Positions 1 to 34,639 of a stretch of DNA of 64,000 bases are shown in pieces. The stretch spans positions 3,238,841 through 3,302,840 of the forward strand of contig NC_049996.1 in assembly GCF_000003815.2 (NCBI RefSeq). The letters run 5' to 3'. Position numbers and translations under genes: made by a program. This stretch comes from Branchiostoma floridae (lineage: Eukaryota > Chordata > Leptocardii > Amphioxiformes > Branchiostomatidae). The notes beneath the pieces were generated by a model. That model made no database searches, was not told where the DNA came from, and saw only the letters and a program-made list of their open reading frames with translations. How positions within the stretch are numbered: the stretch's first letter is position 1; each line of letters starts with the position of its first letter.

Positions 1-317
1 ACAAGATTCTCAAGGAACTCGGGGAAAACATATTTAAGAAGATACGTACTTGAGGTAAGTACAACATGTTGAACGTGTTTTAAACAGCTGTGTTCACATT
101 GTGTACAATTGTACGTAAACCTAAGGTCAACAAGTCTTTGTGTCGGATCATTTCTCGTTTTATATGTCTAGTATGACAATGTTTGGAAAAGGTTGTGACA
201 TTTGTAGGTTGTGAAGTTTTTTGTGTCATAATTTCATCCCTCTAAAGCTAAAAACAGTCGTTAAAATAGATTAGACGGTAGATAAGAAAATGTTAACAGT
301 TCCAAAGTCTATTATGA

Positions 318-460
318 TCGGTCGACCTTGTGTAAATTTACTGTGACATCGGCTTTTACTGTTTTCCTAGGTTGACCTGGTGTGTAATTTTATTGTGACA
401 CCGGTTCCTTTTTTGCTCGGTTGACCTGGTGTGTAATGTTACTGTGACACCGGTTCTTTC
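318..460. repeat. Tandem repeat, about 3 copies of a 50-60 bp unit
   Basis: Three copies of GGTYGACCTKGTGT followed by ACTGTGACAYCGG-like text, separated by T-rich spacers. Each copy holds a TGACC/TGACCT half-site. Origin unknown. Confidence 0.8.
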
Positions 461-484
461 AAATTTTCCATGATTCTTTCCCGA

Positions 485-645
485 TACCCTGGGATCCAGC
501 CGGGATTGGGCAGCTAGGGCAGTTTAGCGATAACTCCTTCAGGCTTAAACTCCCCCGGAGCACTTATGTGAGTTCTGCGGGCTGACTGCCTTGGATCCCC
601 GAACAAAAGTCGCTAGCTACCCGGTCCTGTCTGGCTCCCAGGGTA
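485..645. mobile_element. Foldback MITE, 161 bp, hAT-like duplication
   Basis: Ends TACCCTGGGATCCAGCC and (reverse complement of the right end) TACCCTGGGAGCCAGAC, flanked by the direct repeat CTTTCCCGA (476-484 and 646-654). Terminal inverted repeats with an 8-9 bp target duplication fit a nonautonomous hAT element. No ORF. Confidence 0.8.
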
Positions 646-1441
646 CTTTCCCGACAACCCGTATAGAACTAACACATGTTCAAAATTCATACAACAATGT
701 TTAAAAATCATTTTCCCCTGAGCCCTTTCTTTATATAAAGTCATATATTTTGTGATCTGCAAAGACCGACAAAAAGATGGCGGTAGGTGTTAAGATTCCA
801 ACAAAACGATGCCTTCGCCCACGTACATAATTTAGGAAACAGCTCAGGTAGAATTCGTGGGCGACGCTTACTACATTCCTGGTGAAATTTTAAACTCCTC
901 CGCTCAACTTTGTTTTTATACAGAAGCTTGTCAACTCTACCAAAGGGACAACAGGCACTCCAAACTTGTTGAACACTCGCCATTTGGTATGTAAAATATA
1001 TCTTCACAAGATTCTTTTAGAATCAAATCTCGAAGGCATAACAGCACTGCTCTGGAACAAAGCCTTACTTTGACAAAGAATCTATCAAATTTGTACCAAA
1101 AACACGGTAGTCATTAAAGTGCACTCTATGTTTATCGTATATTGTACTGTGTTTGTTAATGATAGAAATATCATATTTAGTTCATAAAGAAAGTAGATTC
1201 TATCACTTAAGACATATGAGAGACTGGGTAGCCAAAACATTAAATGATTGATTTATTTTCTTCATGCGTTTTGACAAACCGACTATTACTAAACCAATAC
1301 AAGCCCGAAAATTTTTACCATTTCTAAGAAGCGAGAAGAAGCGAATTTGCATACATGTACTATAGTAGATCGTTGATACATTAATACATAATATATTTTG
1401 TCCCTTGTGCGACCTGCACGTAGCCCTGTTGGGCAAAAAGT

Positions 1442-2180
1442 NNNNNNNNNNNNNNNNNNNNNNNNNNNNNNNNNNNNNNNNNNNNNNNNNNNNNNNNNNN
1501 NNNNNNNNNNNNNNNNNNNNNNNNNNNNNNNNNNNNNNNNNNNNNNNNNNNNNNNNNNNNNNNNNNNNNNNNNNNNNNNNNNNNNNNNNNNNNNNNNNNN
1601 NNNNNNNNNNNNNNNNNNNNNNNNNNNNNNNNNNNNNNNNNNNNNNNNNNNNNNNNNNNNNNNNNNNNNNNNNNNNNNNNNNNNNNNNNNNNNNNNNNNN
1701 NNNNNNNNNNNNNNNNNNNNNNNNNNNNNNNNNNNNNNNNNNNNNNNNNNNNNNNNNNNNNNNNNNNNNNNNNNNNNNNNNNNNNNNNNNNNNNNNNNNN
1801 NNNNNNNNNNNNNNNNNNNNNNNNNNNNNNNNNNNNNNNNNNNNNNNNNNNNNNNNNNNNNNNNNNNNNNNNNNNNNNNNNNNNNNNNNNNNNNNNNNNN
1901 NNNNNNNNNNNNNNNNNNNNNNNNNNNNNNNNNNNNNNNNNNNNNNNNNNNNNNNNNNNNNNNNNNNNNNNNNNNNNNNNNNNNNNNNNNNNNNNNNNNN
2001 NNNNNNNNNNNNNNNNNNNNNNNNNNNNNNNNNNNNNNNNNNNNNNNNNNNNNNNNNNNNNNNNNNNNNNNNNNNNNNNNNNNNNNNNNNNNNNNNNNNN
2101 NNNNNNNNNNNNNNNNNNNNNNNNNNNNNNNNNNNNNNNNNNNNNNNNNNNNNNNNNNNNNNNNNNNNNNNNNNNNNNNN
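1442..2180. other. Assembly gap (739 N)
   Basis: Unknown sequence immediately 5' of the miR-34 cluster. More hairpins or a promoter may be inside. ORFs called across it are artefacts. Confidence 1.
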
Positions 2181-2207
2181 AATTCTTCAGTATGAATTGA
2201 GGTGTGG

Positions 2208-2278
2208 TTGTGAGGCAGTGTGATTAGCTTGCCGTCTGATTATGACGTCGCGGCAGCTACTCGCCCTGCCCTCTCAAA
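2208..2278 (+). ncRNA. mir-34: miR-34-family precursor hairpin 1
   Basis: 5' arm starting about 2213 carries the family seed GGCAGTG and the downstream ATTAGCTTGCCG core; the 3' arm at 2251-2272 pairs with it (GCCG/CGGC, TTAGC/GCTA, GAGG/CCTC) across a loop of about 16 nt. The first nucleotide is A where the other copies have T. The hairpin sits 28 nt after the 739-nt N gap. Confidence 0.8.
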
Positions 2279-3321
2279 CACACCTGTGCCACATCGTACC
2301 AGTGTTCGAGTATTTGGAGTTAATTTGCATATTGGGATGCACTTTTAACTGGTACTTTACCATCTTGTATCTCAGTGGAACCCTAAACTCCAGAAAGGTG
2401 TCTTATTCCCCGATATAGGATACGTTTAGGAAGCAAAAAATGCATACTACTTCACAGTATTACGGTTAAAGTACCCACTAGTCCCGCGTGCATCAAAAAG
2501 TATTCAGTATTCTACTTAACTCCACAAGTAAATTCTTAGAAATCTCAGCAGGTAAAAATCACCGGGAGGACTCAGTTGGCCGGTCGGCGACAGAAGCATC
2601 CAGTGCCGAGGAAATCTAGCCTACAGCCCGAGGTAAGACCGTAGGGCGGTGCCTACAAAAGTGGGGCTTACTGCATGTCCTAGGTATGTGCAAGGAGGTT
2701 GAAAGAGGGTATATGTTTGTGTGTATGCTACAACGTGGTTACTTCAATGTCTTTGGTTTGTGTGTGTTTTCATGACAGCTGTTGAGATGGCTGTGATAAG
2801 AGCGGTAGGAAATTGAATATGAAGCAGCTGGTACAATGTTTCGTAAACTATTGTTGAAATTCTATTGTACACTATTGTTGAAATGTCGTTTTTATGGAAA
2901 ACAGGTGGTTTATGTTCTGTGTCTCGGGATAGTCGTAAATGCGTCGTAATTGTGTCGTATGTCTGTCTTGTTACGGAAAAATCTGTCGTATTACAATTTA
3001 CATCCTTGTCAATGGTTGGTTCTGTCACTTTCTGCTTGAAATGCGTCTACTAATTTTGGAACGGTCCTGATACAAGCTCGTTCACACTTCCGAGTACGCT
3101 TGCGCGGCGACGGGATTTGTGGGTAGTATGTCAAAGGTCAAGGCCCCTGACTTGTAAACAATTCTCGACTCGACCATTGTCCAATTTGTAAAACAACCTG
3201 TTTGCTTATAAAAGAATAAAAAGACAAACGAATTTGAGTGAGATGACAGTTAAAAAGGATCACGGAATGCAGATGACACAAGATTCAACCTCTCCGGACC
3301 AAGCGACGACCCCTAACTCTG

Positions 3322-3400
3322 TGTTGTGGTGTGGCAGTGTGAATAGCTGGCCGCGGTGATGTTTGCCGCGACGGCCTCTCTTCACACTACCTTACTACGG
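3322..3400 (+). ncRNA. mir-34: miR-34-family precursor hairpin 2
   Basis: Mature-like arm from 3332 begins TGGCAGTGTGAATAGCTGGC, matching the miR-34 pattern TGGCAGTGT-N-TAGCTGG. The 3' arm (about 3371-3393, with TTCACACTACC) pairs with it, with a CCGCGG/CCGCG-type extension near the loop. Same strand and orientation as its neighbours. Confidence 0.88.
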
Positions 3401-3971
3401 CACGGAATAACGGCGAACAACAACTCATCGGAACATCCAAGAGGAAAATGACTTCAACATTGTTTTGCACATCTTTTACTAACTTACACATGTCACAAGT
3501 ATGAAGTTCGCATCATTTACCAGAAAAGTCACCGGAGCATCAAACAGGAAAATAATCTTCAACATTTACGTAATGTATGCATAGGTTTGCACATCTTTTA
3601 CCTACTTACACATGTCATAAGTTTAAAATTCCTACCATTTACCACTTAAGAATTATGACACTTTCGAATTGATTATGCAAAGTTATTGGAGCATCCAATA
3701 ATAACGGGGAGCAGATTGATATTGTATTTTTTTCATTCATTTATGTACAATTAGTATAATATACGTTGTAGGTATTTACGTTACATATACAGTATGTAAA
3801 CATGTAAAATATACATTTTACGCATGCAAAATAACTGTGTTGAGATACTGATAATAACTCTACTTGAATCATACAATTTTGAAACCTATGCTTTTTATTC
3901 CTTGTCATAATATAGACATTATGATATATCAAATTAAGAGGTTAGAATTTCCTTTGGTATATCCAAACCTC

Positions 3972-4048
3972 GTGCAGCCATCTGGCAGTGTTGTTAGCTG
4001 GCCGCTAGGAGTCGCTCTTTAGGCCCTCTATCAACGCTGCCCTACGGA
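3972..4048 (+). ncRNA. mir-34: miR-34-family precursor hairpin 3
   Basis: 5' arm from 3983 begins TGGCAGTGTTGTTAGCTGGC, the closest of the set to canonical miR-34 (TTAGCTGG core). The 3' arm GGCCCTCTATCAACGCTGCC (4022-4041) pairs with it across a loop of about 17 nt. Confidence 0.9.
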
Positions 4049-4721
4049 AGCGCGACACGTCATCATGTAAATATTTTAAAGCCAATATTGGACCAATGAG
4101 GTTCCACCTAAGATAAAACCTCCATGGTTAAACATAAGAAACAAGTAGTATGTAATCTTTATTGACACATCAAAACTACCGCGACTTTCGCAAGTATAGT
4201 CTATATATACATACAGACAATTGGATACAAATGGATGGACAAAACGTTATATGAAAATATCAGCATGTTGAGTTTAAAATATCGTTTACATTACTGGTTC
4301 TAAGGCCAAATATTGTTTGACATATTTATATATTTGTACACAGTCAAGGGTTATCTCCTTCTAGAATGTTATCAAATTCATCTATGCGATGGAATGTATC
4401 GAATTCTTTTGAACAAGCCGCAAGAAAGTTGAACAGTTTTGTGCGTTTATCATCGTATCTTGAACAATCCATTATAAAGGGATATATGTTCGTTTTCAAT
4501 CTATATAGCTAATTTGGACAGGATGGACAAAAACCTCCGGTAAATTAGAATTTTATGATATCTACCAATTTCAACGTGTAGTTTGTGACTACAGATTTTT
4601 ACCTTAAGAATTTTCAAAATTATGTATATACAAAAGGTAAATTCGAAATGTATCTCTTCTTTTGTGGTCTTAGTTTAAACTTGTTTGAAGCACAATCTTC
4701 AAAGAAATAAGGGCTGGTTAC

Positions 4722-4801
4722 CTGTGTGTTGCTGTGGCAGTGTGGATAGCTGGCCGTTTCTAATATAACAGCCACTGTACACACTCCCGTAATAACACAC
4801 G
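4722..4801 (+). ncRNA. mir-34: miR-34-family precursor hairpin 4
   Basis: 5' arm from 4735 begins TGGCAGTGTGGATAGCTGGC; 3' arm 4769-4790 contains CCACTGTACACACTCCCG. The lower stem extends with TGTGTGTT at the 5' side against AATAACACAC at the 3' side, a strong Drosha-type stem. Confidence 0.9.
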
Positions 4802-5307
4802 GACTTACAAAGCGGAGAGGGAAATGAAGAAAACTTCTTAATACGCAAAGGTGACACAGACGAAACATATCGATAACGTCTGGCCGTTTCTAAAATCATA
4901 TCCAGTTGCTTGAATTACTGTTTTTGGTGTAGTTTACTAGTATTACCTGAATGTCAAACCTTCATTGACGTTACTTTTCACTGTTTGATAGCTCATTTGA
5001 ATAGCCTTTATGAAATAGGAACAACACAAATAAAGAAGCCTTCGTAAATTTTATTTACTATTACATAATTCTTCTTATGTGTTTTATGATAATGTAAATA
5101 TATTATTTCATATTTTTGTATTGTACACCTTAGAAGTTGAGCTGTCATCCTGAGAATATTAGAATGACTAACAAATTTGCTGGTTGACTTCGAGCTCAGT
5201 TCACAATCACCGAATGTAGTGGGCACTTCTACCTGCACATGTAATTACACCTAGAAATCGTACTTTGCCGAGAGTGGATCAATAAAAGATGCAGAAATTT
5301 GACGTTT

Positions 5308-5470
5308 TGCTGCAGTGCCATAACAAGCCGCTAGCGGGCCCAAACCTATATTATAGAAAGTCCCACGTCAAGACCTACCCACATATCAAATATCAAGACA
5401 ATCCACCAAGGCTTTCTTGAGTTATCGTGTTGACAAAAACACACACACAGACTAACACACAAAACGCACA
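5308..5470. repeat. Dispersed repeat with AC-rich tail, copy A
   Basis: Shares AAGACCTACCCACATATCAA, TATCAAGACAATCCA and TTATCGTGTT with 61450-61620, followed by an (AC)n-like tail. This looks like the conserved 3' tail of a retroposon. Family not identified. Confidence 0.7.
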
Positions 5471-5627
5471 AACGCTAGCGCTCACAAAAACATGGTCTTC
5501 TTGACCCGGAGGGCATTAGAAACTCAGCCGTGGAAGACAATCATTTGTCAGCGAATTTTCCTGATTTGGACGCCTAGAACGTCTGTAGAAGTCGCCATTT
5601 ACAGAAAGTGAATCAGCAAAGAATCGA

Positions 5628-5709
5628 GCCCGCCAGTTTGGCAGTGCGCGCCTACAGCTGACCCGGTATGACCTCACGGGCCACTGTACACACTCCCAGC
5701 CGGGCGGGC
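5628..5709 (+). ncRNA. mir-34: Divergent miR-34-family hairpin 5
   Basis: Seed TGGCAGTG at 5639, but the arm continues CGCGCCTACAGCTG, which pairs with the 3' arm (5681-5698, CCACTGTACACACTCCC, identical to that of hairpin 4) only if a 4-nt CGCC bulge is left unpaired. The lower stem is strong (GCCCGCC at 5628 against GGCGGGC at 5703). The bulge in the mature arm may alter Dicer products or mean decay. Confidence 0.65.
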
Positions 5710-6057
5710 CAATACACGACCAGGACTCCTTCACAAGGACGAGTATATAATTCAAACGTGCCAAAAAACGGTAAGTTCAAATCACACAATATTGTGCAAT
5801 GTTACGAGGTGCATTGAACGAAGGATTGCTCCAGTACTAGTCTTTTGGTTCCAGATATAGCATAGGGGGCAATGATGCTATGAACTTCTGCCTGTTCTCT
5901 CTCTCCGGACCTCGTTTTAGTTACTCCAACAAGGACGTCCTTGACTCTACATAGCGCCTTCACAGCAAATATGCAATTAACAGTAAGCAACAGACAATTA
6001 TACACATACAGAGGTTATCACATACAGGATTTGCGGCTGGCCTAGCTAGACCCCTTA

Positions 6058-6568
6058 GGCCGCAGCAAGTAAATTTTATGGAGGACATCCTCTGCAGACT
6101 GCAAAATTAATGAGATGAGATGGATGAAAAAAAACGAGATGGGTAAAAAAAAACAAAATGCCTAAATTAGACATCATAAACGTCGTAACATGATTTGATG
6201 TGACAAAACGTGACATCACAACTAACAAAGTGTTCATTCCTGGATGAAAGAAGTGAAGTAGTATAGTAAAAGTAATACTAGCGTAGTACACTGGTATCAC
6301 CTACCAAGCTGGCAACTACAGTCATGGCTTCCATATTGGTGGCACTTTTACAACTATCCAACAAGTTTCACTTCTGCAACTACAGTCATGGCTACCTCCC
6401 TAGTGCTACTTCTACAAGTATGATTGCTAGTATTAGGCTACAACACCTTTGCCTATTTCGGTCTATCTGAAAATCCCCGAAGAGGGAAAACGTTCTTGCT
6501 TATTTCTGAAATCAGGCAAAAATTAATGAGCGCGCTGATGTCATCCATAAAACTAACTTGCTGTGGCC
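6058..6568. mobile_element. PIF/Harbinger-type MITE, copy A
   Basis: Ends GGCCGCAGCAAGTAAATTTT and, at the right, TAACTTGCTGTGGCC, flanked by TTA (6055-6057 and 6569-6571). A 3-bp TWA duplication is the PIF/Harbinger hallmark. The interior shares blocks (CATGGCTTCCATATTGG, TGGCACTTTTACAACTATCC) in inverse orientation with the copy at 56139-56681. No transposase ORF. Confidence 0.85.
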
Positions 6569-6571
6569 TTA

Positions 6572-8860
6572 TCAGAACAAATTGGGTACGGTATGTACTC
6601 CTGTGCGTGTTTTGACTTCTTCGAGCGCTTGTAGCAAATTATCCGTCTCAAAGTCAAGGTCATACCGTCCCGATTTGAACTTCAAAGTGTTCAGTGAAGT
6701 TCAAGGCCACAGACGAGAGCCTTGAGATAATAAATGAATCTAATTAAATCTACGTTGTCCAATATGAAGTTTTCAACGCGAACTTGAAACCGCCGCTAAA
6801 ATTTTTCCTTGTACAGTAAAATCTTACATGGCAGTTTCTACGAACTTAGAACAGTCGCCAAACCACGAATACATAATGTTTTACATACCAAGAAAATAAA
6901 TCCACTCTAACATTTTAGCTTTTACAGTAAAATCTCGAAGTGTGTAGCCTCTGTTGCCATCCTAATGTGTAGAGGTATAAATGAGGCCTCTTGTATTTGG
7001 TGACAGCAAAACGTTGAAAAGAAGCCGGAAGACAATTGAAATAATGTAAACAGCACTAGAAATATAACATTTTCGAGAAAATGCAGGACATTTTCCTCCC
7101 AGTAATTTGCCTTTTGCGAAACCAACAAATGTAGGCTTTACCGTATCGTTAACATGTAATAATCAACGTAGGTTTTGCTATATAGCAAACCTGTGATATT
7201 TGCTGTAACAGTTTATATTTCTGTCATTTTTGCTGTAATAGCTAACACTTGGTTCATACATGTATTTGCTGTAACAGATTAAATGTTGAAGTCACTGATA
7301 CCGAAGACCTGATTGGTTCATGGCAGATTGAGAAGAAAAGAAGAGTGAAGAACACACCAACAAAAACAATATGTCTTTCTTTGGGGGAACATAAAAGTCA
7401 CCCGATGTAAGATCCTGTTTATATAAAGAAAGAGGAAGTAAAACCGCATTGACATCATCGGGTATTCCCCTTGTTGGAAACAATGTAGACTGTGATCTCA
7501 TTCAAAAGGAAGCTATCATAATCCGGTATGGACGACGGCCAGAAAAGGGGCAGGGGGACTCTGTGGTACAACTGTAAACTTTATTGCAAAATCAACATGG
7601 CAATATTGCATTGCATAATGTTTGCCTCGTTCAGTATTGCAGGGATAAAGATTTAAAATACTAACAGCCAACGTGAAAAGTTTATAAATTTGGCATGAAC
7701 AATTAATGGAGTGTTCAAAGAGATGGACATGGGCATGGACATGGCTAAAGTTCTTATGATTAAGGAGTTCTTGCTTGTGTCTGTTAGTATTGATTAAGGA
7801 GGTTTAGTCCCACACGACGGCCGAGGTTACAAAGCGCGTACGGCTTACTGCGTTGGAGGTTTATGCGCGGTATAAGCGCAGTACGTCGTTAGTCGGGGAA
7901 GAATCGAAAGCAATGGTTTAAATACATAAAGCCGTGGTCACAAAGCTCGCAGAACATGTTTCCACCTTGTACTTGCAATTAGCCTCCGGGCATGAACATG
8001 CAAAATAAACTGTATCAGTATTTCTTTTATTACTTGAAGTATCACTCTTTGCATTACCTTAGTTGTTTTGTAGACCAATGGATTGTTAACTGTCTGTAAT
8101 TTCTTTTTAGTTATCAATAAAATGACTTAGAAAACGACTATTCGTGCGTATTGAAGAAAAGTAGTTCCCCCTTCATAAAGTTTTGTTCACGTAAAATGCT
8201 ACGTATACTACCAGTTGAACTACAGGTTCTTCAATTCACGTAAAATGTGACATGCCTAAAAAGCGATCTACTTGTTCTAACAGATTTGTTTTTATTCTTG
8301 ACGGTACCAAATTGGACACACATAAATACATAATCATAAAATGTGTAGAATTTGATGATGTCAAAAATTATTATGGACTTCAAAAAGGCTTTGGCAGCCA
8401 CAAAAACAAGACCTACGTCGACGCTAGCCCCCAAACGAAACGTTCAACGCTCCATTTAAGGACCTACAGTTAATACCCCGGACACTGTAAACGTGTGGAC
8501 CGCTAAAAACATCGTTTGATCCCGTTAATGTCTGGTAACATGAACTCCTGAGGAGGGCAGACGGAATGGCGCCAGTTGGAAAGGTCATGACCTGAACACA
8601 CGGGGGCAGTCTACCCGACCATACCTCTAGTCAAGTGGCGGGAAACTGTCCGAGCAGGTGGACGGGAAAAATTCCATCGGGATTCCATCGGGAGCTTCTC
8701 CCTATGTCGACGGGGCTGGGAGTGTAGCCCGCCCGCCAAGGTCATTAGCGCTCCCCGGTGAATTGTTACGGGGTTGTGCTGAGAAAAGCCAGGCTAACAC
8801 TAACAGAAACAGGCCAATGTTAAGGTTAACCTCCGACCCAAACCTCTGTTTGTAGAATAG
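6572..8860. other. Intergenic, no gene seen
   Basis: Short ORFs only. Contains three spaced TTTGCTGTAAYAG repeats at 7195-7280 and GC-richer patches at 7800-7900 and 8500-8850, without splice-supported exons. Confidence 0.5.
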
Positions 8861-8869
8861 GTGACGTTT

Positions 8870-9152
8870 GTTTATTTTTCATTCATTTGTTCGTTCCAAA
8901 AATCACATGTTCATTCATTCACTTTCATTCCATTTTCGTTCGTTCAAAAAGTCACCCATTCATTTCTTCATTCTTTCCTTCCTTTTTGTTCGTTCAAAAA
9001 TTCACCCACCCATCTATCCATCCATCCATTCCTTTTTTTTCGTTTAAAATGTCACCCATTCATTCATTCCTTTATTCACTCACTCATTTCTACCTTCCTT
9101 CCTTCCTTCCTTCATTCATTCATTTACTCACTCACTCACTCATTCATTCGTG
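8870..9152. repeat. Degenerate CATT/CCTT microsatellite with higher-order unit
   Basis: Long (CATT)n, (CTTC)n and (ACTC)n runs. A larger unit of about 60 bp recurs four times, starting TCGTTCAAAAAGTCACCCA or near variants. The Ser/His/Phe-rich ORFs across it are translation of the repeat. Confidence 0.9.
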
Positions 9153-9829
9153 TGTATTGAAAACAATCTGGCATCTAGTCTGTGTAACACAAACTCCGCT
9201 GTCCCTGCGTGGGCCGGCGGATGTTTGGCGGGCTGCTATAAGCGAGATTTAATCAGGCTATCTGGCATCCAGGTTTTTATAAAGTTCTATGTTGAGTAGA
9301 CAATTCTATCCACGTTTCAGCCACCTGTTTTAAACTCTCTATGGACCAATTTGGTGAAACAAGAATGCCCGGATGTACAGACGATACTAGCGGCTGGGTG
9401 GTCCAAACTCTTAATATGTACTTCAAAGCCTAGTCGGAACCCTCAAAAACACATTCTCCCTACCACAGACACTGGTGATATCACGTTCCAGTGTCGTTAG
9501 TAGCACTGTGAGGGGGTGGGCGGTAGGAAAGTCGAGAGAGTGGGGGCTAATTTTGGGCGCGAATGTTTGTGGTGAGAGTAGACCCGCCGACACCAGAGGT
9601 CAGGCCCGGGCGGACCTCCCAAGTGTGTGGGAAAAATCGTGTGTGGAGTTAGCCTCTACCAGGCTCCACAGGACGCTGGAAAAATGGTGAAAATCGCAAA
9701 ATAGACAGGTTAGAACACACCTTGCCAAGGAGTACATTAGCAAAAAGTTAAATTCTCCAAGCTGATCCTACGGTAGCATAAGACAGTATCAAAAGTTGGT
9801 AGAAAAGTGAAGCCGGTCTAGGAGTGTGT

Positions 9830-10050
9830 ATGCTACCGGTGACCGCCTGACTCCCTTTGACCGGCTATACTCCTTTGTCAGCTTTTATACTAATAACTTA
9901 TGGCACCGTAGGATCTGCTTGGATATTACAAAAATTGTACTGTACACTCTTTTGTCAGCTAACTCCTCTGGCATGTTGTTATCTGTCTATTTAGCCAATT
10001 TCTACTATTTTTTCAGCGACCTGAGGATCCGATGGAGCCTGGTAGAAGCT
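9830..10050. repeat. Dispersed repeat, copy A
   Basis: Shares TTTTTCAGCGACCTG then GAGCCTGGTAGA, and the CCGGCTATACTCCT type opening, with 48770-48875. Unclassified family. The flanks (9153-9829 and 10051-11761) show no gene. Confidence 0.55.
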
Positions 10051-11769
10051 AGTTAGGGTTGGTATTTATCGTTTGGGTGTTATTATAGCGAATGAAACTC
10101 CTGACACAGGTACATGTATTGTACATTTTTTAACAACTTGTCTTGTACAGGTCACAAACAAAGATATTGTTTTACAAACATACATGTACAACACATATTG
10201 GTACGGGTTTTGCGTAGTCTTTCATATAGGTTCGGCTTCTACTTGACTCTTGGTAATAGCGTCAGCAAAAATGTAGGATTGTATTATAACGTTATAGTCG
10301 TTGTGTCGAAACGAAAGAGGAATATTCATTTTTCAATGCTTCTCATATATCTAGATATATAAATCATCGATGTGGTTTACTGTCAATATATCAACTAAAT
10401 GAGATATTTCTATCATTAAAATATGTAGTACAATCTTCGATTAAGTGCACTTCATCTTTTACCACATTCGAGGAACAAAATTGTCAGCTTCTTTAAATAT
10501 GGACAAGAATATAGGTTAGGATGGTTATGGATATACTTTTGGCCAAATATACGAAATTATTTTCATAGGAGAAAATGTTTCCTTGTTATCTGTCGATTTT
10601 TCTGATTTTCAAGCAATGATGTAATTAGCGTTCAACCAATGAGAGAGTACCTGCTCGTCACCTGTCAAATATTTGCATTTCTGTGTTTTTATTTTGCATA
10701 TTGGGCTTGGGATCCGTCTATTCGTAGCCGGAGCACTCAAATGCAACGTGGAACGTAAAGGCGCCTGAATGTAGAGTTAAGCGAAACCAACTTGTTGAAA
10801 TACAAAGCCGCTGTCTTCCTGAATTTAGCGAATTCTAAGAACGTTGCCAGCCCCCTCATTCGACATGATTCGTACAGAGGTCGTCGAATTTTGCATAAGT
10901 ACCTTCTTCTACTTCTATAGTGTATTGTGGAAATGACGGAGCTTTACTGTCAATTTTAATCATCGATTCAACCAATGTGAGAGGGGCAATCAGTTGTTCA
11001 ACCAATGAGAGAGCGGCTGCGTGTCAAGAAACATGTAGTTTATGTTTGAATTTTGCATCACTAAGGTTTAACTTGTAAACGTCTATACGTAATTTATGAA
11101 TTTAGGATACTTACCCCCGTTATGTGTCTTTATATGAATGAGAAAATGTTGTTCAAATGACTTCAAGTGATCATACCAAATCTTAGCCAATCACGAACTA
11201 TTTCGTGCTTAATTACGTCATATTATGTTCAAATTTCCCGCCACGATTACGTAATGTCCACAGGTACATCTGTGTGAGCCTCGTCTGATACTTTTGTCAA
11301 AACAAAAAGTGCAGTTTTCTCATAATTCCACGAAAGTTTTTCAAGAAATATTGTGCCGAAATGCTTCGGTAATAACATGGGCAAAGCAGCTGCAAAATGA
11401 GCAAACATATGCCATAGAGACAAGAAAAATATCCGAAAATGGATACAAAAGGAAGAATATATAATTTTTGCATCCATATAATGAAATAAACATGGTCGTA
11501 CCAATCAAAACAGAAAGGTTTATTGTGCAAACATTAGTCGCTATTTTTTTTCTATTTGTAAATATTGTCATGTCTTAATATTTAGTGTCGGAGAATATGT
11601 CACTGCATCAATTGTTATGTATTTTCATTGCGTAAAATAACTCATACAGTCTTTGAACTGCATTAGTTGACTGCAATGTTGTATTAGTGACTTGTAAATA
11701 AACCGATTTAAATTCATGAAAAAATGGCAAGAGACTCAGGGATCTTGACGATCTCTTCTACCTCCCGAT

Positions 11770-12150
11770 TAGGAGTGGGTACCAGTGCGGTGTAAGGAAA
11801 AAACGGACCTGAAAAAAAAATCGGTGGACCGGATGCTGGACCTCAGTATTAAAATATGATCAGTCATTCACACGTTTTTGGGCTTACTGGTCGAAGAAAA
11901 TAACAAGAGCGAAGTAAAGTAGAGTCTATAGTCATTTCTAACAAGCTTTTAAAGCCAATCGTACAGAGACAGTTAGCCTTGTAGGATTTTAAAACGCCAG
12001 TGGGAGTCGAATACTCCTAAAGTCAGATTTCTTTGTAGTGAAATGGACAATTGTATGAGTATCGTCCATTCACAAGTTTCACATACTGAATCAGGTCCAT
12101 GTTCAGGTCCGTACCTGGACCTGAATTTTCTGTACCGGTACCCACCCCTA
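11770..12150. mobile_element. Nonautonomous hAT-like element, 381 bp
   Basis: Ends TAGGAGTGGGTACC and GGTACCCACCCCTA are inverted repeats, flanked by CTCCCGAT (11762-11769) and CTCTCGAT (12151-12158), an 8-bp duplication with one mismatch. The interior is shared with the fragment at 59844-60475 (GGACCGGAT, CATTCACAAGTTT, AATCAGGTCCA). Confidence 0.8.
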
Positions 12151-12158
12151 CTCTCGAT

Positions 12159-13542
12159 ATCTGCTTGGACAAGACAGTTCAGACGGTGTCAGCGGTAACG
12201 TGAACTCGTGCGACCGGAAGCCACGCAGACAGGTCCCGCTAAATACAGGAGAAAAACAACGAGCAGGGAATAGCAATGGCCAAATATAAAACGTGTTGAG
12301 ATATAGACGGATAGAACAACATTACAACACTTTTAAGCGTCAATCTTAGGGCGAGGGAAGGGCCGTTTGATATCATATCAATATATTTTTGATAGTTATT
12401 TATTTGCAAAATCTAGACCGTAGCATAAAAGTTCTTGTTTATTATGAATAAGCCAAATCTTCAAGTGCCCAACAGTTATAACTAATAGAGAGATAAAACA
12501 AGCTTAAACTTACCCAAATCTCGTAACTGTAACATCTGGTCGGATGTGCCAGGTAACCTATGGCACAACCCGTCTCCGTTCAAGGTCGGACAGTGAGCTC
12601 GAATACTAATTGGCTCTTTCAATTCTCGTGCAAAACTTGTGAAGTTCCAATTGCATTTTTTTCTTTCATGATGATGTATATGATGTGTATTCATTTTCAA
12701 AATCATGCAAATGTGTTATGTAACATTTCCTATAATTAATCTGGGAAAAAAAGTACAATATTTGAGACGACAAAAACACACAAAGCGTACCAAAAATCAT
12801 CCAAGAGTAAAACGTGTGCATATTTCTTGATAGATGTAGGTAATTTTTCAGTCGTTTCCACAAACAGCTCGACCCGTATGGGAAAGATGACCCTAGTATT
12901 ACGTTATTTGTTTTGACATTTTTTATCAAACATTTAAACTGTAATACAATATGACAAAGAGGTAGCGCACTCAAGTACAAGACTTATTTTGACGCTACCC
13001 CCCTTTGACATTTCTACGGTCACTGAAGCAGCTTCGGGAACGAAAGGTATGACATGAAATAGAACAAATCCGGCATAGAGAACGTAAAGTAATTAGTCAT
13101 AAGGATAATTTGTTTACCTATGTCTAAATGAATTTTTATTTTTTTTGTTTTTTCTGGGCCCCTGTTTGGAAATGTGACCAAGGTATAGAATCAAAATATT
13201 TTGATGGCGTGTTTGATAACAACAAAGCTTTAAATCCCATTTCCTGTGGATAAGCCCACACTATCGTAAGAGCTGTCACACAGGGAAATGTTGTTGACTC
13301 CGAATCCCTACAGACGGCGGCAGGTGGACATTGTTCTGCGGGCGCCCCTCGCCCTGCCCCCCGCCCACATTGTTGTTAAACCGCCCACACAGACTACTTG
13401 ATATCGGGGTCGGGACGCCAAGAGTGGTTCAAAGTTTGTAAGGTCAACAACTTTTGGGGGAAAAAAACATGTTGCGATATTTGTGCAACCTTCGTCAAAA
13501 TGAATGATTTGAAATGTACGATTCAAACATTATGTCTTGAAC
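12159..13542. other. Intergenic, no gene seen
   Basis: AT-rich with short chance ORFs. A GC patch at 13310-13390 has no splice context that I can support. Confidence 0.45.
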
Positions 13543-13613
13543 TAGCCTGGTTACCAAACCCCAGCCCGATCTCAAGTATATATCTTGAGGTTGGGGTATG
13601 GAATCCAGGCTAG
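13543..13613. mobile_element. 71-bp palindromic MITE with perfect 8-bp duplication
   Basis: TAGCCTGG ... CCAGGCTAG palindrome (inner arms CCAAACCCCA / TTGGGGTATGG) flanked by TCTTGAAC at 13535-13542 and 13614-13621. A very short hAT-type MITE. Confidence 0.85.
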
Positions 13614-13621
13614 TCTTGAAC

Positions 13622-14900
13622 GGAAGATGTAAAATAATTTCTCTGAAAGCGTTTTTCATCGCGATCTACAAGTGAAGTGATCAGATAGAAAAACGTAACT
13701 ATTCATACTAATACTAATGTTGGTCACTTTCTAATTGTAATTTCATTCCAAACTATTGTAATTTCATCTCTTAGTTATACAATACTCAACCTTCCTGTCC
13801 TAAAACGAAGAAACAAACTTGAGAGGTCTATCTACTTCACTGGACCTAGGTGTTGAAAAGGCGAATATCGCAATGTAATGATCTTGACGTTTAGCAAATT
13901 TTGCAAGATATTACAGACCTATAGATTGTACTACAGTATATGAAACTGTAAACTATGGAAACATAATTATTGAAAGTATCCAGTAATTGGTCGATAAATT
14001 TCACAGATTTCCATACTTAACGTTAAATTAAAGAATGTCTAGTACTTAGAAGGATCCTGACATAATGTTTAACATGGTCTAAAGACCCATACATTATACT
14101 TATCTCCAAGCAGATGTTGCAGTACTTCTGACAGTCATCCTGAAAGTGTCACTATGTATGGTGATTTAAGTTTTAAAAAGTGTCATGTTAGCCTGTACTA
14201 GCCAGTGTGTGTGTGGATATACATGTATACGGTTTGTGCATGTGCCACATGTGTGCAATTTTTGCTATAACATGAGAAGCTGTGGATGGATCCTTATACA
14301 GGTGGGCAGGTATCTGAAGGCACCTGTGTAATATACATTGTTATGTTTTGTCTGCTTTCTTAAGGTTTCCTCACTGGCTAAATTGTCATTTTGACTTTGG
14401 ATTTATTTTCTCACTAATGGAGTAAGAAATAACTGCAGTCGTACCTAAGATATTGATAGCTGGACATAAAAGATTTCTAACATTTATGATTTCTGGACCA
14501 TATGGATAATGCCATCAAGTTTTGATACCCCTAACATCCTATTTTCTGAGCAAAAATCCAACTTGAGAGTATATCTATTAATTGTCCCTGTTACAATTCA
14601 GACAAAGTCAAAGATTACTACAGAATAATTGATTTTGCTTAATCAACAATTAAAAAACAGAATAATTACTTTTGTTACATCAACAATTATCTAATAACCG
14701 CAGGACAATTGTAGATAAGCGAATGTACATTTGATAATTGTGATTTGTTATATCAAATATCCCCCTCACAACAATGTACAGTCCCTAACCACCCTATCAA
14801 AAACAGGATGTACTGTCTTAATTACACTCAGACCCTTTTACACACCATGATGTCACCAGCCTGGAAAAGTTGGGGACTATTCTGAGTGATGACTCCATCC
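13622..14900. other. Intergenic, no gene seen
   Basis: AT-rich, no ORF of note. Probably the region upstream of the TATA promoter at 14993. Confidence 0.4.
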
Positions 14901-14992
14901 GCCTCTTCTGATTGGTTGAGACAAATCCGGCGACATTAGGTCATCGCTTTAGAATCTCCCGACACCGACCCATCCCACTAGACGACCACAAG

Positions 14993-15000
14993 TATATAAA
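14993..15000 (+). promoter_or_regulatory. TATA box of a putative pri-miR-34 promoter
   Basis: TATATAAA, preceded by a region richer in GC than its surroundings and by a CCAAT-type site in reverse (GATTGG at about 14910). A TATA box at this place predicts initiation near 15025-15030. The next supported feature on this strand is the miR-34 hairpin at 17105. Confidence 0.55.
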
Positions 15001-15026
15001 TATAGCGATATACTCAATGATATTCC

Positions 15027-15107
15027 ATTTATTGGACGACTTGAACCAAGTGAAGAGCTAAAAGTGGCGACGGCCCTGCAGAAGAGACAGAAGCTAGCAG
15101 TATATTT
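15027..15107 (+). ncRNA. Putative noncoding first exon of the miR-34 host transcript
   Basis: Starts about 30 bp after the TATA box (start approximate) and ends at a consensus donor TATATTT|GTAAGT at 15108. The segment has no useful ATG ORF: the only ATG nearby (15017) precedes the predicted start and gives 14 codons. The layout TATA, short noncoding exon, intron with miR-34 resembles vertebrate MIR34A, but that is analogy. Confidence 0.4.
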
Positions 15108-17104
15108 GTAAGTACCAAAATACGGCATCCCTGCTATATCCTTCTTGGTGTTTTGCCAGTACTAACATTATTATTGTTTATCCTAATGTTTTTGCTCATT
15201 TATCTCATTGCATCAAATATTGTTGCAAAATATCAGTCGGAAACATACAAAGTCATGTGTGATATAAGATTCGTGATTTTGAATATGATTCGTATTGCCA
15301 GATAATTATTTTTGTGAATTGCTGGAAACCACAAGTATTTTGAACCCGGAACCATATATACAACTGATCTTTACAGACAAAAAGACCGATGAGTGTATTC
15401 GTTCCAATTGTCGTGAAAGGCCGTACTGAAGCTTTTAATCAAATTGTTTCACAAAATAATTGTTTGTTAGGTCGACACACAATTTTATATCATTGGCTCT
15501 TGAACATTTCAAAGTAATAGTTCAGCAGGTGGACAAATTAAAAACAGAGGCATGAAATGTTGCTTTGGACTTTCATGATATTGACTTCCTGAAACTGTAA
15601 AATTTGTGCCAAGAATCTGTTTCCATATTGAGCTTTGAGTTCAGCATTATATTTTGAGATTCGAGAATAAAGAAATCAAATTGGAGTGACCTTGAATTCA
15701 AACTGAATGTCACAAAATCTTTACTTTTGATATTTGTGATCTTGAAGAGACATGAGAAAAGCCGTTCATTCAAAAACACAGCTTCACAACCAAACACCTG
15801 TTTTGATAATGCTACATGCAAGCTAAAATTCTGCACAATCAACTGCTTTATTCAGTCTCGTGGTTTAGAACTGGGTTGACAGGAAATATCGTGGGTTGAA
15901 CGGAAGCGACCGTTTGTTTACTAGTAACAGACTGAAATAGTTGAATAAACAATGGTTGTGAAGGGGAAGTTGTTCACAACATAGGTGAAAAGTGTACTCT
16001 CCAAGCAGAGGTCTGGGGGAAAATTGTGACTCTCATGTGCCCTGTTTTCTTTCTGCCCTCCCATATGTAATGTTAGCTGCTATACATGTACAACCTCTAC
16101 TTGGTGAGTAGAAAAGTATAGGAATACAACATTACAAAACAGCAACAAAGACCAAGACGTAAGTCTGCTCAGACCACAAATATTCTATCATTTGAAAACA
16201 CTGTATACCTTTATATAGGTATAGATTTTCCCTGTTTTAACATCGGCATTCAAATATTCAAGTTCAACACCAAAGTTTTGGCCGCCAACAAATCATGTTA
16301 CTTTTTTGGCTATCAATTTGTCCAAACCGTAGAGCTATACACAGCTCTGTATAGTGTCCCTGCTTCAATTGATGACAAGGTTAGTTAAAGGCCAGTCAAG
16401 TCGTTACTATATGGCCAGCAAATTCCTTTTAGTAGCAAAGAGCCTACAAAAATGATAAGTCAAACCAAGGACACCACAGCTGACTACAAATGAGAGAAGT
16501 CTACGTGCACTTGACACAGCCGCATCTAAACTTGGACCCTAATCTACATACCACCAGTCCCATATTCTTACTACAAGGTTAGAGTGATTAGACGGACTGT
16601 CGACAGCCAGATTAAGTAAGCTCATATTAGAGATTAACTGGGATTATTTAGGGTCACAAAAGGCATTTCCTAATCAATTATGGTCAACTTATCACTGCAA
16701 ATATGGACTTTTGGTGTCAATATTTGGATACATCTTTTGTAGATATATTAGTTACACATTGGCGCATATCAACACCTTATAACACTGAACAGGCTTTGCC
16801 AGGGCTGTCTCTTAAGGACAGAAATTTGGTTCTTGGGGCAAAAAGATCCCTGTCTGAAAAAAAAACAACAACATAAACTTCATAACACAAAATTGTATTT
16901 TCATACAGCTTAAAATTACAGATTTCTCAAAGAATAACATAAGCTCCTCAAGAAATTGCCAGGGTGAAAAAATTCTATGCTGTAAAAAGTACTTGTTTTT
17001 TCTGACAATTTTGTACTGGAGGGATATTCTTTTCATCTGTTCTTTCTTTGCCTTACAGATACAAGAAATTACAGCCGGGGCTAGTTGATGTATTTCTTCT
17101 TCTT
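15108..17104 (+). other. Probable first intron or body of the pri-miR-34 transcript
   Basis: No coding exon seen. A repeat-like fragment at 16797-16860 (AGGGCTGTCTCTTAAGGACA) is shared with 55458-55500. Assignment as intron depends on the donor at 15108 being used. Confidence 0.35.
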
Positions 17105-17178
17105 TGTTCTGTGGCAGTGTATTTAGCTGGGTAAGGAAGCTTTCAGTCTTTTACCCACTATATACACTACCTATAGAA
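17105..17178 (+). ncRNA. mir-34: miR-34-family precursor hairpin 6 (isolated)
   Basis: 5' arm from 17112 begins TGGCAGTGTATTTAGCTGGG; 3' arm 17151-17172 (TTACCCACTATATACACTAC) pairs almost completely across a loop near AAGCTTTCAGTC. It is 11.4 kb from the cluster and 2 kb downstream of a TATA promoter and candidate first exon, so it may have its own transcript. Confidence 0.92.
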
Positions 17179-19335
17179 ATAAGAAGCCTGTCTTCGAACA
17201 ATTCAAACCTTAAGTTTGCAATACAAAACATCGATTGATTTCAATGAGCTTGGACACAATTTAATGATCACCACTTGAAGGATTCGTGAAAGGGAGTTTT
17301 TGCACAATGTTAGTTTCAAAGCCAGTCATATTATGCTAATGTTATCTGTCTTGAATATGTAGAATTAACAGTACTTTATAAAGTCTACATTACAAAATGT
17401 TTTGTGACGTGTATTTGTGACGTGCCTACGATGGTACCCAGGCTACATACCATCTGCTTGGAGATAACCGTTCTACTAATAAAGCAGTGACAACAAGCAA
17501 CCACCACAAAAACTACGAGTCCTTGAAAGGTGTAAAATATACTTGCTTTACTCTTGTTGTTGCTGTACAAAAGGCACATATTACAGAAAGGACTATACAA
17601 TACAAACATGGCGTAAAAACAATTACAAGAGGTGATATACAAAACGTCAGCAAGTTTTACCGTACAGCAAAAGTTTTCATTTCTCTTATAACAAACAAAG
17701 CTACATTAAACTCTATCTATATTATAATACAAGTTTTTTTTCACTATCCCGTCCACCCCTATGCAAGGTGTTTGGTATCATCTGGTTACAAAGCTTAACT
17801 AGGCATCTGGAAGAGTCCATCACTGTTGATAGGGGGTATTATACATCATATCCTAATGCATACCTATTAGAACTGTACAAAATTTACAGGCACCTGATAA
17901 AAGAAAATTTGGTCAGACTTGGATTTCTTTTACTATTGTGAATACACAAAATGATAAGGATGTACAGTATCTTCATTGACTGATGTGCTATAATAAAACA
18001 AGTTACAGTAGACTACACTAGTATGTTTAGTTGTACTTCTTTACCCTGTGTATGATTTGAGAAATTTACTACCATCCAATTTGAGTAGAAACAATAAAAT
18101 CTATGGACATTTTTTTTCTGACATTACATCATTAAAAGAGAATACGTTTACCAATTGGCAGTTTAACTGGGTAGTACATATTAATACATGTACATACAAA
18201 AGTACATGTACTGGGAAACATACAATTTTGGCAAGACAACTGAATTGTATATGGTCTTAAATGCGTCTATGAACTATCAATTCTTATGAGAATATATCGT
18301 TGAAGCTTAAAATATATAAACAATAACTACACATGGCACCATAGACTTTCAGCGACATCAAGTTGAATTTGATTTCAACAGTTTGAATAACAAAAGTGAA
18401 AACTATATTGATTTGTATCAAATCATAAATTCGATTAGGACTGTTTTAACTATCATGTTACAACATCATAATTCATCTTGAGAAGAAAATAACTCAAAAC
18501 AAATACACACTATGAATGCTAACCAAAAACAAAAGTACAATTTCTGAGAACTTTTAGATTGAAGGAAAAGTTAAACTATTGGAAGTACGTTTAAACTTAA
18601 CTTAAACAATTAAGAGGTATAAATTGCACACTCATATAATTCATTAAAGCAAATATTATTAACTGCTATCTTAAAGATATTGCAGATTTTATTTGTACAA
18701 TATCATATTAGCATAAACAATACAAAAAACACTTAATAGATGTCTGTATTCTCTTTGAACACAATTTTAAAACAAAGTGAATACTGATTTGCATATTAAA
18801 CACACTTCATTAGAATATATGTTACCCAACATTGCATAAAGAAAGGTGTTGACAAATTCGATGTTAAAATCAGAACTTTACAAATTTACAATACTTAAAC
18901 TAAAATCAGCAAAAATGCTAGCCTAATATATGTTTGTAGCAAATATTAATTTTGGTACCACTTGCTTTATGGTGAGATTATCTATATGGTACAATAACAA
19001 AACTGTCACAAGTTAAGATAAACAAAAATTAGAGAAAAACTGTTTGTGGGAAATGTAGAGCATGGCAAGACTTTGTATTTTTCACTTCATTGTAAAGTAC
19101 TTACCAGAAAAAAATCTACAAAAGTATAGAATTTTAAACAGTCAAGACATAGTGTACAAAATTGGCAAATGTTTGGCAACTACTTCCTGACAAGGCAGGA
19201 AATAAATTTATGAAATTCACTACAATAACTATATTGTACTAAATAAAATAATATATAAGTATACATAATACAAGCTCTGAATCACGCTCTAAGTTGATTT
19301 AAAATTCTAATTCAGGACTCAATAAAAGGGTTCGT
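17179..19335. other. AT-rich region, probably the 3' UTR or 3' flank of NCKAP5
   Basis: Low-complexity A/T-rich sequence without exons or repeats I can name. It is the expected place for the NCKAP5 3' UTR on the minus strand. A candidate poly(A) signal (AATAAA on the minus strand) is at 18688-18693. Unproven. Confidence 0.3.
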
Positions 19336-31745: not shown

Positions 31746-31842
31746 CATAATGCACTCACAACGCGGTTTGCACAATTAGCCAATTGACCAATAACATGTA
31801 CGTTATTGCACAGTAATTACAAATGATTGTGTATTACATTAC

Positions 31843-34455: not shown

Positions 34456-34639
34456 CTGCAAGGAACAGAGAACAGCATTAGTAAAGATTTCATATTGAGA
34501 AAGATTTCTGAAATACACCAGCTGCAGAATGTCAATGATAGGTACATGTAGGTAGTCCAAAAGACTTTTTAAGGCTGCAGTAGATACAGTGGTTTGTCAT
34601 CCACAGTGTAACTAGATAGTGCAAAGTATTGGGAGGTGG

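What the first reader, a model, noticed from the sequence alone, without database searches (positions are those of the whole stretch)
2208..5709. Tandem cluster of at least five miR-34-family hairpins
Five same-strand hairpins in 3.5 kb keep the GGCAGTG seed but differ in the middle of the mature arm (GTGTGATTAGCTTG, GTGTGAATAGCTGG, GTGTTGTTAGCTGG, GTGTGGATAGCTGG and a bulged one). Vertebrate miR-34/449 loci carry one to three copies, so this is a lineage expansion of a regulator of p53 response and multiciliation. The seed is fixed while the 3' supplementary region varies, suggesting dosage or target specialisation. miR-34 expansions may already be catalogued for amphioxus in miRBase.
Basis: partly seen in the sequence, partly recalled or inferred. 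Interest (0 to 1): 0.75.

Follow-up and report, generated by a model that had tools for sequence, protein, structure and literature searches.

The report
Amphioxus miR-34 microRNA gene cluster

Summary
(1) Four of the five hairpins (mature arms from 2213, 3332, 3983, 4735) are good miR-34 precursors: Rfam mir-34/mir-449 hits below the gathering score, fold z -6.4 to -3.3. The fifth (5639) keeps the seed and shares an identical 18-nt stretch of 3' arm with the fourth, but is weak (z -2.0, no Rfam hit). (2) A sixth hairpin, not listed, lies at 17097-17185 on the same strand and N-free stretch. It is the second-best mir-34 match among the genome's scored candidates. Its 5' arm equals, 23 of 23 nt, a small RNA sequenced in Branchiostoma belcheri and filed as "novel_mir52". 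Paralogs show compensatory stem changes; 5 of 6 have CNNC 17-18 nt past the inferred Drosha cut. An inverted copy of hairpins 1-5 (84-95% identical in pieces) sits 3.04 Mb away, most likely a misplaced haplotype; in it the stretch matching the N gap has no further hairpin. A member on C17 matches bbe-miR-34b-3p exactly. Shared transcription, p53/cilia roles and target specialisation are untested; miRBase could not be checked. New member of a known kind.

The parts
2198..2285 (+). hairpin 1, miR-34 precursor; inferred 5p from 2213 (AGGCAGTGTGATTAGCTTGCCGT)
   Evidence: RF00456 42.9 bits; fold z -6.44; coordinates from model R1, which was built from it
3317..3405 (+). hairpin 2, miR-34/449 precursor; inferred 5p from 3332 (TGGCAGTGTGAATAGCTGGCCGC)
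   Evidence: RF00711 34.8 bits; fold z -5.27
3968..4055 (+). hairpin 3, miR-34 precursor; inferred 5p from 3983 (TGGCAGTGTTGTTAGCTGGCCGC), first 19 nt identical to the honeybee miR-34 sequence printed in PMC9863880
   Evidence: RF00456 35.3 bits; fold z -4.69; paper passages
4720..4802 (+). hairpin 4, miR-34 precursor; inferred 5p from 4735 (TGGCAGTGTGGATAGCTGGCCGT)
   Evidence: RF00456 41.3 bits; fold z -3.29
5624..5711 (+). hairpin 5, diverged or decaying miR-34-like hairpin; seed kept, mature arm bulged; 18 nt of its 3' arm identical to hairpin 4
   Evidence: no Rfam hit; fold z -2.02, 7 of 200 shuffles as stable; arm identities
   Evidence: RF00456 51.5 bits; fold z -6.39; 23 of 23 match to a sequenced small RNA
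1442..2180 (.). assembly gap of 739 N; the inverted copy has an unbroken stretch of 738 nt here, without GGCAGTG on that strand and without an R1 hit
1..5748 (+). segment also present, inverted, at C18:201075-207404 (four aligned pieces of 84-95% identity; hairpins 1-5 all kept in order)

Best explanation
This is a same-strand miR-34 microRNA gene cluster in amphioxus (very probably Branchiostoma floridae): four firm hairpins and one weak one within 3.5 kb, and a sixth 11.4 kb further on. It most likely arose by local duplication of a miR-34 hairpin. Each hairpin is inferred to be cut by Drosha and Dicer to release a 5' arm with the family seed GGCAGUG, which guides Argonaute to mRNAs with the matching site. 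Sharing a seed, the copies mostly add dosage; their differing 3' halves could tune targets. Shown: homology, foldable hairpins with compensatory changes, a sequenced identical mature arm for hairpin 6 in a sister species. Inferred: processing of hairpins 1-5, a shared primary transcript, any biological role.
For: Rfam mir-34/mir-449 matches to four of the five and RF00456 51.5 bits for hairpin 6. Fold z-scores -6.44 to -2.02 and -6.39. On 10 distinct aligned rows the stem pairs in 85.7% of cells, 14 of 23 pairs have changes on both sides, and 0 of 500 shuffles reach any of the five measures; sliding the partner by 1-3 columns drops pairing to 30-50%. In an alignment of 7 paralogs without allelic pairs 17 of 26 pairs have both-sided changes. 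CNNC at 17-18 nt after my inferred 3' cut in 5 of 6 hairpins (chance of 5 or more at 16-18 about 1.5e-4). B. belcheri novel_mir52 equals window 17112-17134 in 23 of 23 nt. Between the two assembly copies hairpins 1-5 differ at 4 of 405 aligned sites with no gap columns, the rest at 206 of 2911 with 420 gap columns. Among hairpins 1-4 the 5' arms agree at 18-21 of 22 columns, the 3' arms at 11-15 of 21 (6 pairs), as expected of a family whose 5p is the guide.
Against: No match reaches Rfam's gathering score. Hairpin 5 fails on fold and Rfam. Reads are known to me only for hairpin 6 and only in another species; 18-nt strings of hairpins 1, 2 and 4 were in 0 papers of the library (a hairpin 5 string, in the form of the second copy, was tried only and was in 0), and 0 of the 77 sequences of the B. 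belcheri table match hairpins 1-5 within 3 mismatches (the table lists only differentially expressed RNAs). The constraint signal comes from hairpins 1-2 (2 of 162 against 170 of 1378, p 1e-6); hairpins 3-5 alone show none (2 of 243 against 31 of 1494, p 0.31), because that half is nearly identical throughout; random placement of five blocks gives as few changes 1.7% of the time. The strands opposite hairpins 1-4 also score with the models, so strand rests on the seed. The 11.4 kb to hairpin 6 makes a single transcript uncertain.
Confidence: 0.93

Rival explanations
1. Only some copies are working genes: hairpins 1-4 and 6 are processed, hairpin 5 is a dying duplicate of hairpin 4. (This refines the best explanation and can hold together with it.)
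For: Hairpin 5 has the weakest fold, no Rfam hit, a bulged mature arm, and a C in the window copy where the other copy has T, with a weaker fold (MFE -38.5 against -40.7).
Against: Seed, a basal stem of 11 nt below the mature arm and CNNC at 17 are kept; it differs at only 2 of 82 sites between the two assembly copies.
Confidence: 0.55
2. The second copy at C18:201075-207404 is a real inverted segmental duplication, so the animal has two hairpin 1-5 clusters per haploid genome.
For: Inverted, 3.04 Mb away on the same chromosome. Homology stops sharply at window 5748 inside N-free sequence on both sides. Beyond the break each side has its own sequence: the copy's next 790 nt gave only one other match, of 68 nt, and the window's 6600-9600 only matches of under 140 nt. 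In both calls only 40 candidates were scored and a repeat took nearly all of them, so uniqueness is not firmly shown; repeat-free reruns did not complete.
Against: The copy sits in a 19.5-kb stretch bounded by gaps of exactly 100 N (C18:199716-199815 and 219364-219463), as small contigs joined by scaffolding do. Divergence of 1.5-15% in the spacers with many indels is what two amphioxus haplotypes could show (high heterozygosity recalled, not tested).
Confidence: 0.25
3. The hairpins are chance or repeat-derived inverted repeats rather than microRNA genes.
For: This genome has a palindromic repeat family that scores 30-38 bits with the same Rfam model, so the model alone can be misled.
Against: Five of five repeat loci viewed have no GGCAGTG on either strand; the window hairpins have the seed, compensatory changes and, for hairpin 6, a sequenced mature arm.
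Confidence: 0.03

Closest known systems
mir-34 family (Rfam RF00456), animals
   Same: Seed GGCAGUG on the 5' arm, TAGCTGG or TAGCTTG core in 5 of 6 window hairpins, hairpin of the same length; hairpin 3 shares its first 19 mature nt with honeybee miR-34 (PMC9863880, passages seen)
   Different: Six same-strand members in 15 kb; the four hairpins that match this model score 35-52 bits, under its gathering score of 53.4
Vertebrate mir-449 (RF00711) and mir-34b/c clusters (layout recalled)
   Same: Local cluster of miR-34-seed hairpins
   Different: More copies; no BTG or Geminin-family match found on this chromosome
B. belcheri novel_mir52 (PMC5650284, Table 2)
   Same: Identical over all 23 nt to the 5' arm of hairpin 6
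   Different: Filed there as novel, not as miR-34; its genome position is not given in the section and passages seen
bbe-miR-34b (PMC5650284, Table 2) and its match at C17:3397463-3397534
   Same: miR-34 seed in the C17 hairpin; its 3' arm identical in 22 of 22 nt to bbe-miR-34b-3p
   Different: Other chromosome, one hairpin with a stray 5'-arm copy upstream, 5p diverged after the seed (GGCAGTGATGTCAGTTTG)

Membership tests
mir-34 microRNA family | Seed GGCAGUG at positions 2-8 of the 5p arm | tested here: met
   GGCAGTG in 6 of 6 window hairpins; the 5p start is shown by a sequenced RNA for hairpin 6 only
mir-34 microRNA family | Match to the Rfam covariance model | tested here: inconclusive
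   5 of 6 hit mir-34 or mir-449 at E-value thresholds; 0 of 6 reach gathering; hairpin 5 has no hit
microRNA gene (any) | Stable hairpin with the mature arm paired in the stem | tested here: met
   15-19 of the first 22 mature nt paired; z -6.44, -5.27, -4.69, -3.29, -2.02, -6.39; hairpin 5 marginal
microRNA gene (any) | Small-RNA reads with fixed 5' end | tested here: inconclusive
   met for hairpin 6 through an identical B. belcheri mature RNA; no data for hairpins 1-5, and 0 of 77 table sequences match them
microRNA gene (any) | Conservation of the hairpin structure | tested here: met
   compensatory changes among paralogs; structures were derived from the same sequences
polycistronic miRNA cluster | One primary transcript | not testable with these tools
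   needs RNA-seq; only same strand and proximity are seen
vertebrate miR-34/449 p53 and multiciliation module | Regulation by p53 or the multiciliation programme | not tested
   no expression or binding data; neighbour-family test negative

The most novel reading that the evidence does not exclude
Hairpins 4 and 5 have moved from 5p to 3p output: their 3' arms agree at 19 of 22 columns (18 of them one identical run, GCCACTGTACACACTCCC) while their 5' arms agree at only 12 of 22 and, past the seed, 4 of 14; the six pairs among hairpins 1-4 show the reverse, 18-21 of 22 in the 5' arm and 11-15 of 21 in the 3' arm. If so, part of the cluster is an arm-switched microRNA carried beside miR-34 members that keep the old job, hairpin 6 among them, whose sister-species product rises on a viral mimic (novel_mir52, log2 change 1.30 in PMC5650284).
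Probability: 0.12. Interest if true: 0.6.

Novelty: new member of a known kind. Interest (0 to 1): 0.38.

Why it matters
miR-34 is one of the oldest animal microRNAs (recalled). A paper on chordate microRNA genes left MIR-34 unplaced among the ancestral chordate linkage groups (PMC8789304, passage seen). A chromosome-level placement of six members on C18 and one on C17 in amphioxus gives a concrete outgroup for the vertebrate miR-34a, miR-34b/c and miR-449 loci. It also relabels a published 'novel' poly(I:C)-responsive amphioxus microRNA as miR-34.

Tried and rejected
Vertebrate synteny: Pfam BTG and Geminin over the own genome gave 2 and 1 matches, none on C18; a BTG match on C17 is 5.2 Mb from the C17 mir-34b hairpin, too far to count.

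Gene content near the cluster is therefore not settled.

More copies: RF00456 (63 of 64,851 first-look candidates scored) and RF00711 (57 of 43,838) over the own genome gave 38 and 13 matches. RF00456 rows did not include hairpins 2 and 5, nor RF00711 rows hairpins 2, 5 and 6, so these searches miss members. Of the ten RF00456 loci viewed, five look like a palindromic repeat with no GGCAGTG, three on C6 are undecided, two are the C17 hairpin and hairpin 6. RF00711's C5 and C2 matches (35.6, 30.8, 24.8 bits) were not folded. A second GGCAGTG 0.4 kb upstream of the C17 hairpin does not fold into a miR-34 hairpin (MFE -15.3).

Model R1 finds, above 45 bits, only the 12 sequences it was built from in 177 kb; the other 12 of its 24 matches are their opposite strands. 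That is not independent support. A first alignment had four rows from the other copy in the wrong place or orientation and was dropped and remade.

Literature: ten searches. None of the seven papers that I opened, by passages or single sections (PMC2728532, PMC8789304, PMC8704543, PMC5650284, PMC3763532, PMC2824724, PMC9863880), describes this cluster; the other listed papers were seen as listings only. Supplements, subscription papers and miRBase were not open to me, so this does not show that it is unpublished. I recall, unverified, that miRBase lists several amphioxus mir-34 entries.

The other 31 were then compared: one hit, bbe-miR-2060c-3p with 3 mismatches in L014, irrelevant here.

Full report
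What is there. The seven-base seed is common by chance (10 sites on both strands of 64 kb, 5.84 expected), but the extended mature pattern GGCAGTGTNNNNAGCTNG, drawn from these hairpins, has five exact matches with none expected in 100 shuffles. Rfam places hairpins 1, 3 and 4 in mir-34 and hairpin 2 in mir-449, all under the gathering score. Fold z-scores are -6.44, -5.27, -4.69, -3.29 and -2.02 for hairpins 1-5 and -6.39 for hairpin 6. Hairpin 5 is therefore the doubtful one: no Rfam hit, and 7 of 200 shuffles fold as well.

The sixth hairpin. Searching the whole genome with the mir-34 model (63 of 64,851 first-look candidates scored) returned window 17106-17179 as its second-best match (51.5 bits), just behind C17:3397463-3397534 (51.9 bits) and ahead of the three listed hairpins that it reported. 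Its 5' arm, 17112-17134, is identical in 23 of 23 nt to 'novel_mir52', a mature small RNA sequenced in Branchiostoma belcheri, listed as up 1.30 log2 after poly(I:C) (PMC5650284, section 7 with Table 2 read in full; match). The table does not name it miR-34. The same table's bbe-miR-34b-3p is identical in 22 of 22 nt to the 3' arm of the C17 hairpin. None of the table's 77 sequences matches hairpins 1-5 within three mismatches; the table lists only differentially expressed RNAs. The two exact matches, with a genome of 513.4 Mb, make amphioxus safe; B. floridae is inferred from its recalled assembly size.

Structure evidence. An alignment of six window hairpins, five from the second copy and the C17 hairpin (12 rows, 10 distinct) has a consensus stem that pairs in 85.7% of cells; 14 of 23 pairs change on both sides, and 0 of 500 shuffles reach any of the five measures; slid controls pair at 30-50%. 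Related rows inflate such counts, so I also folded 7 paralogs without allelic pairs (hairpins 1-4 and 6, the second copy's hairpin 5 in place of the window's, and C17): 17 of 26 pairs keep pairing through changes on both sides. The structure in both cases was derived from these sequences. CNNC, a motif known from other animals' microRNA processing (recalled), sits 17-18 nt after my inferred 3' cut in 5 of 6 hairpins; hairpin 4 lacks it (chance of 5 or more at 16-18 about 1.5e-4, with the cut sites estimated by me).

The second copy and the gap. The assembly holds an inverted copy of window 1-5748 at C18:201075-207404 in four aligned pieces of 94.5, 88.8, 83.9 and 94.0% identity, with all five hairpins in order. 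It has an unbroken stretch of 738 nt where the window has 739 N, with no GGCAGTG on that strand and no R1 hit, so the gap probably hides no further member. Homology continues left of the window (97.7% over 1.57 kb and 76% over 1.08 kb) and ends sharply at 5748, before hairpin 6. The copy lies in a 19.5-kb stretch between two gaps of exactly 100 N, which fits a misplaced second haplotype better than a true duplication. The break inside continuous sequence, and flanks beyond it that gave no long match elsewhere (40 candidates scored in each, nearly all a repeat, so not conclusive), keep the duplication open. Either way it is a comparison: hairpins differ at 4 of 405 sites without gap columns, the rest at 206 of 2911 with 420 gap columns. 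The contrast is strong for hairpins 1-2 (p 1e-6) and absent for 3-5 (p 0.31); placing five blocks at random gives as few changes in 1.7% of trials.

How it works. The best reading is a microRNA gene cluster made by local duplication. Processing to 5p guides with the GGCAGUG seed is inferred for hairpins 1-5 and supported for hairpin 6 by the sister-species RNA. Whether one transcript carries all six is unknown; hairpins 1-6 do lie on one N-free stretch, 2181-19335.

An oddity. Hairpins 4 and 5 agree at 19 of 22 columns in the 3' arm but at 12 of 22 in the 5' arm, 4 of 14 past the seed. Among hairpins 1-4 the 5' arm is the conserved one: 18-21 of 22 against 11-15 of 21 in the 3' arm, over six pairs. 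A recent copy with a damaged 5' arm explains this; selection on the 3' arm is the bolder reading.

Known or new. miR-34 clusters are known in vertebrates and the family is ancient (recalled). Hairpin 3's first 19 mature nt equal honeybee miR-34 (PMC9863880, passages). Clusters in amphioxus were reported in general in 2009 (PMC2728532; section 7 and passages seen); the one mention of miR-34 in its main text does not describe this locus, and its cluster figure and supplements were not open to me. Ten searches of the held library led to no paper that, in the parts I opened, describes this cluster. I file it as a new member of a known kind, with the caveat that miRBase or MirGeneDB may already list several of these hairpins.

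Noticed in passing
window 17097-17185: Sixth miR-34 hairpin outside the given range; its 5' arm is identical to B. belcheri 'novel_mir52', which belongs to the miR-34 family by seed.
   Followed up: yes
C18:201075-207404 (L010 1075-7404), inverse of window 1-5748: Inverted copy (84-95% identical in four pieces) carrying hairpins 1-5, 3.04 Mb away, in a 19.5-kb stretch bounded by 100-N gaps; likely a misplaced haplotype, possibly an inversion-breakpoint duplication.
   Followed up: partly
L024, L025, L026, L032, L033 (C4, C17, C7, C19, C6): Palindromic repeat family (roughly AGTTAGCTGG ... CCAGCTAACT) that scores 30-38 bits with the mir-34 model; B. belcheri 'novel_mir48' matches copies with 2-3 mismatches (L024, L032, L033, L050, L051, L058; L032 and L051 are one place), so it may come from this repeat.
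   Followed up: partly
C6:23311230, 23331448, 23758694, 23786823 (L029, L031, L030; the last not fetched): Related hairpins on C6 at 26-35 bits to mir-34; two of the three viewed have GGCAGTG on the matched strand. Undecided between a diverged family and a repeat.
   Followed up: no
L018 1116: A second GGCAGTGATG 0.4 kb upstream of the C17 mir-34b hairpin resembles its 5' arm only and does not fold as a miR-34 hairpin.
   Followed up: yes
window 31839-34568 (-): 909-codon open frame with no Pfam match at E up to 1; probably a large exon of an unidentified gene.
   Followed up: partly
window 38521 and 53345 regions: Stretches with repeated TGCAGATAGGT-like units that fold very stably (-51.7 and -48.0 kcal/mol per 88 nt).
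   Followed up: no
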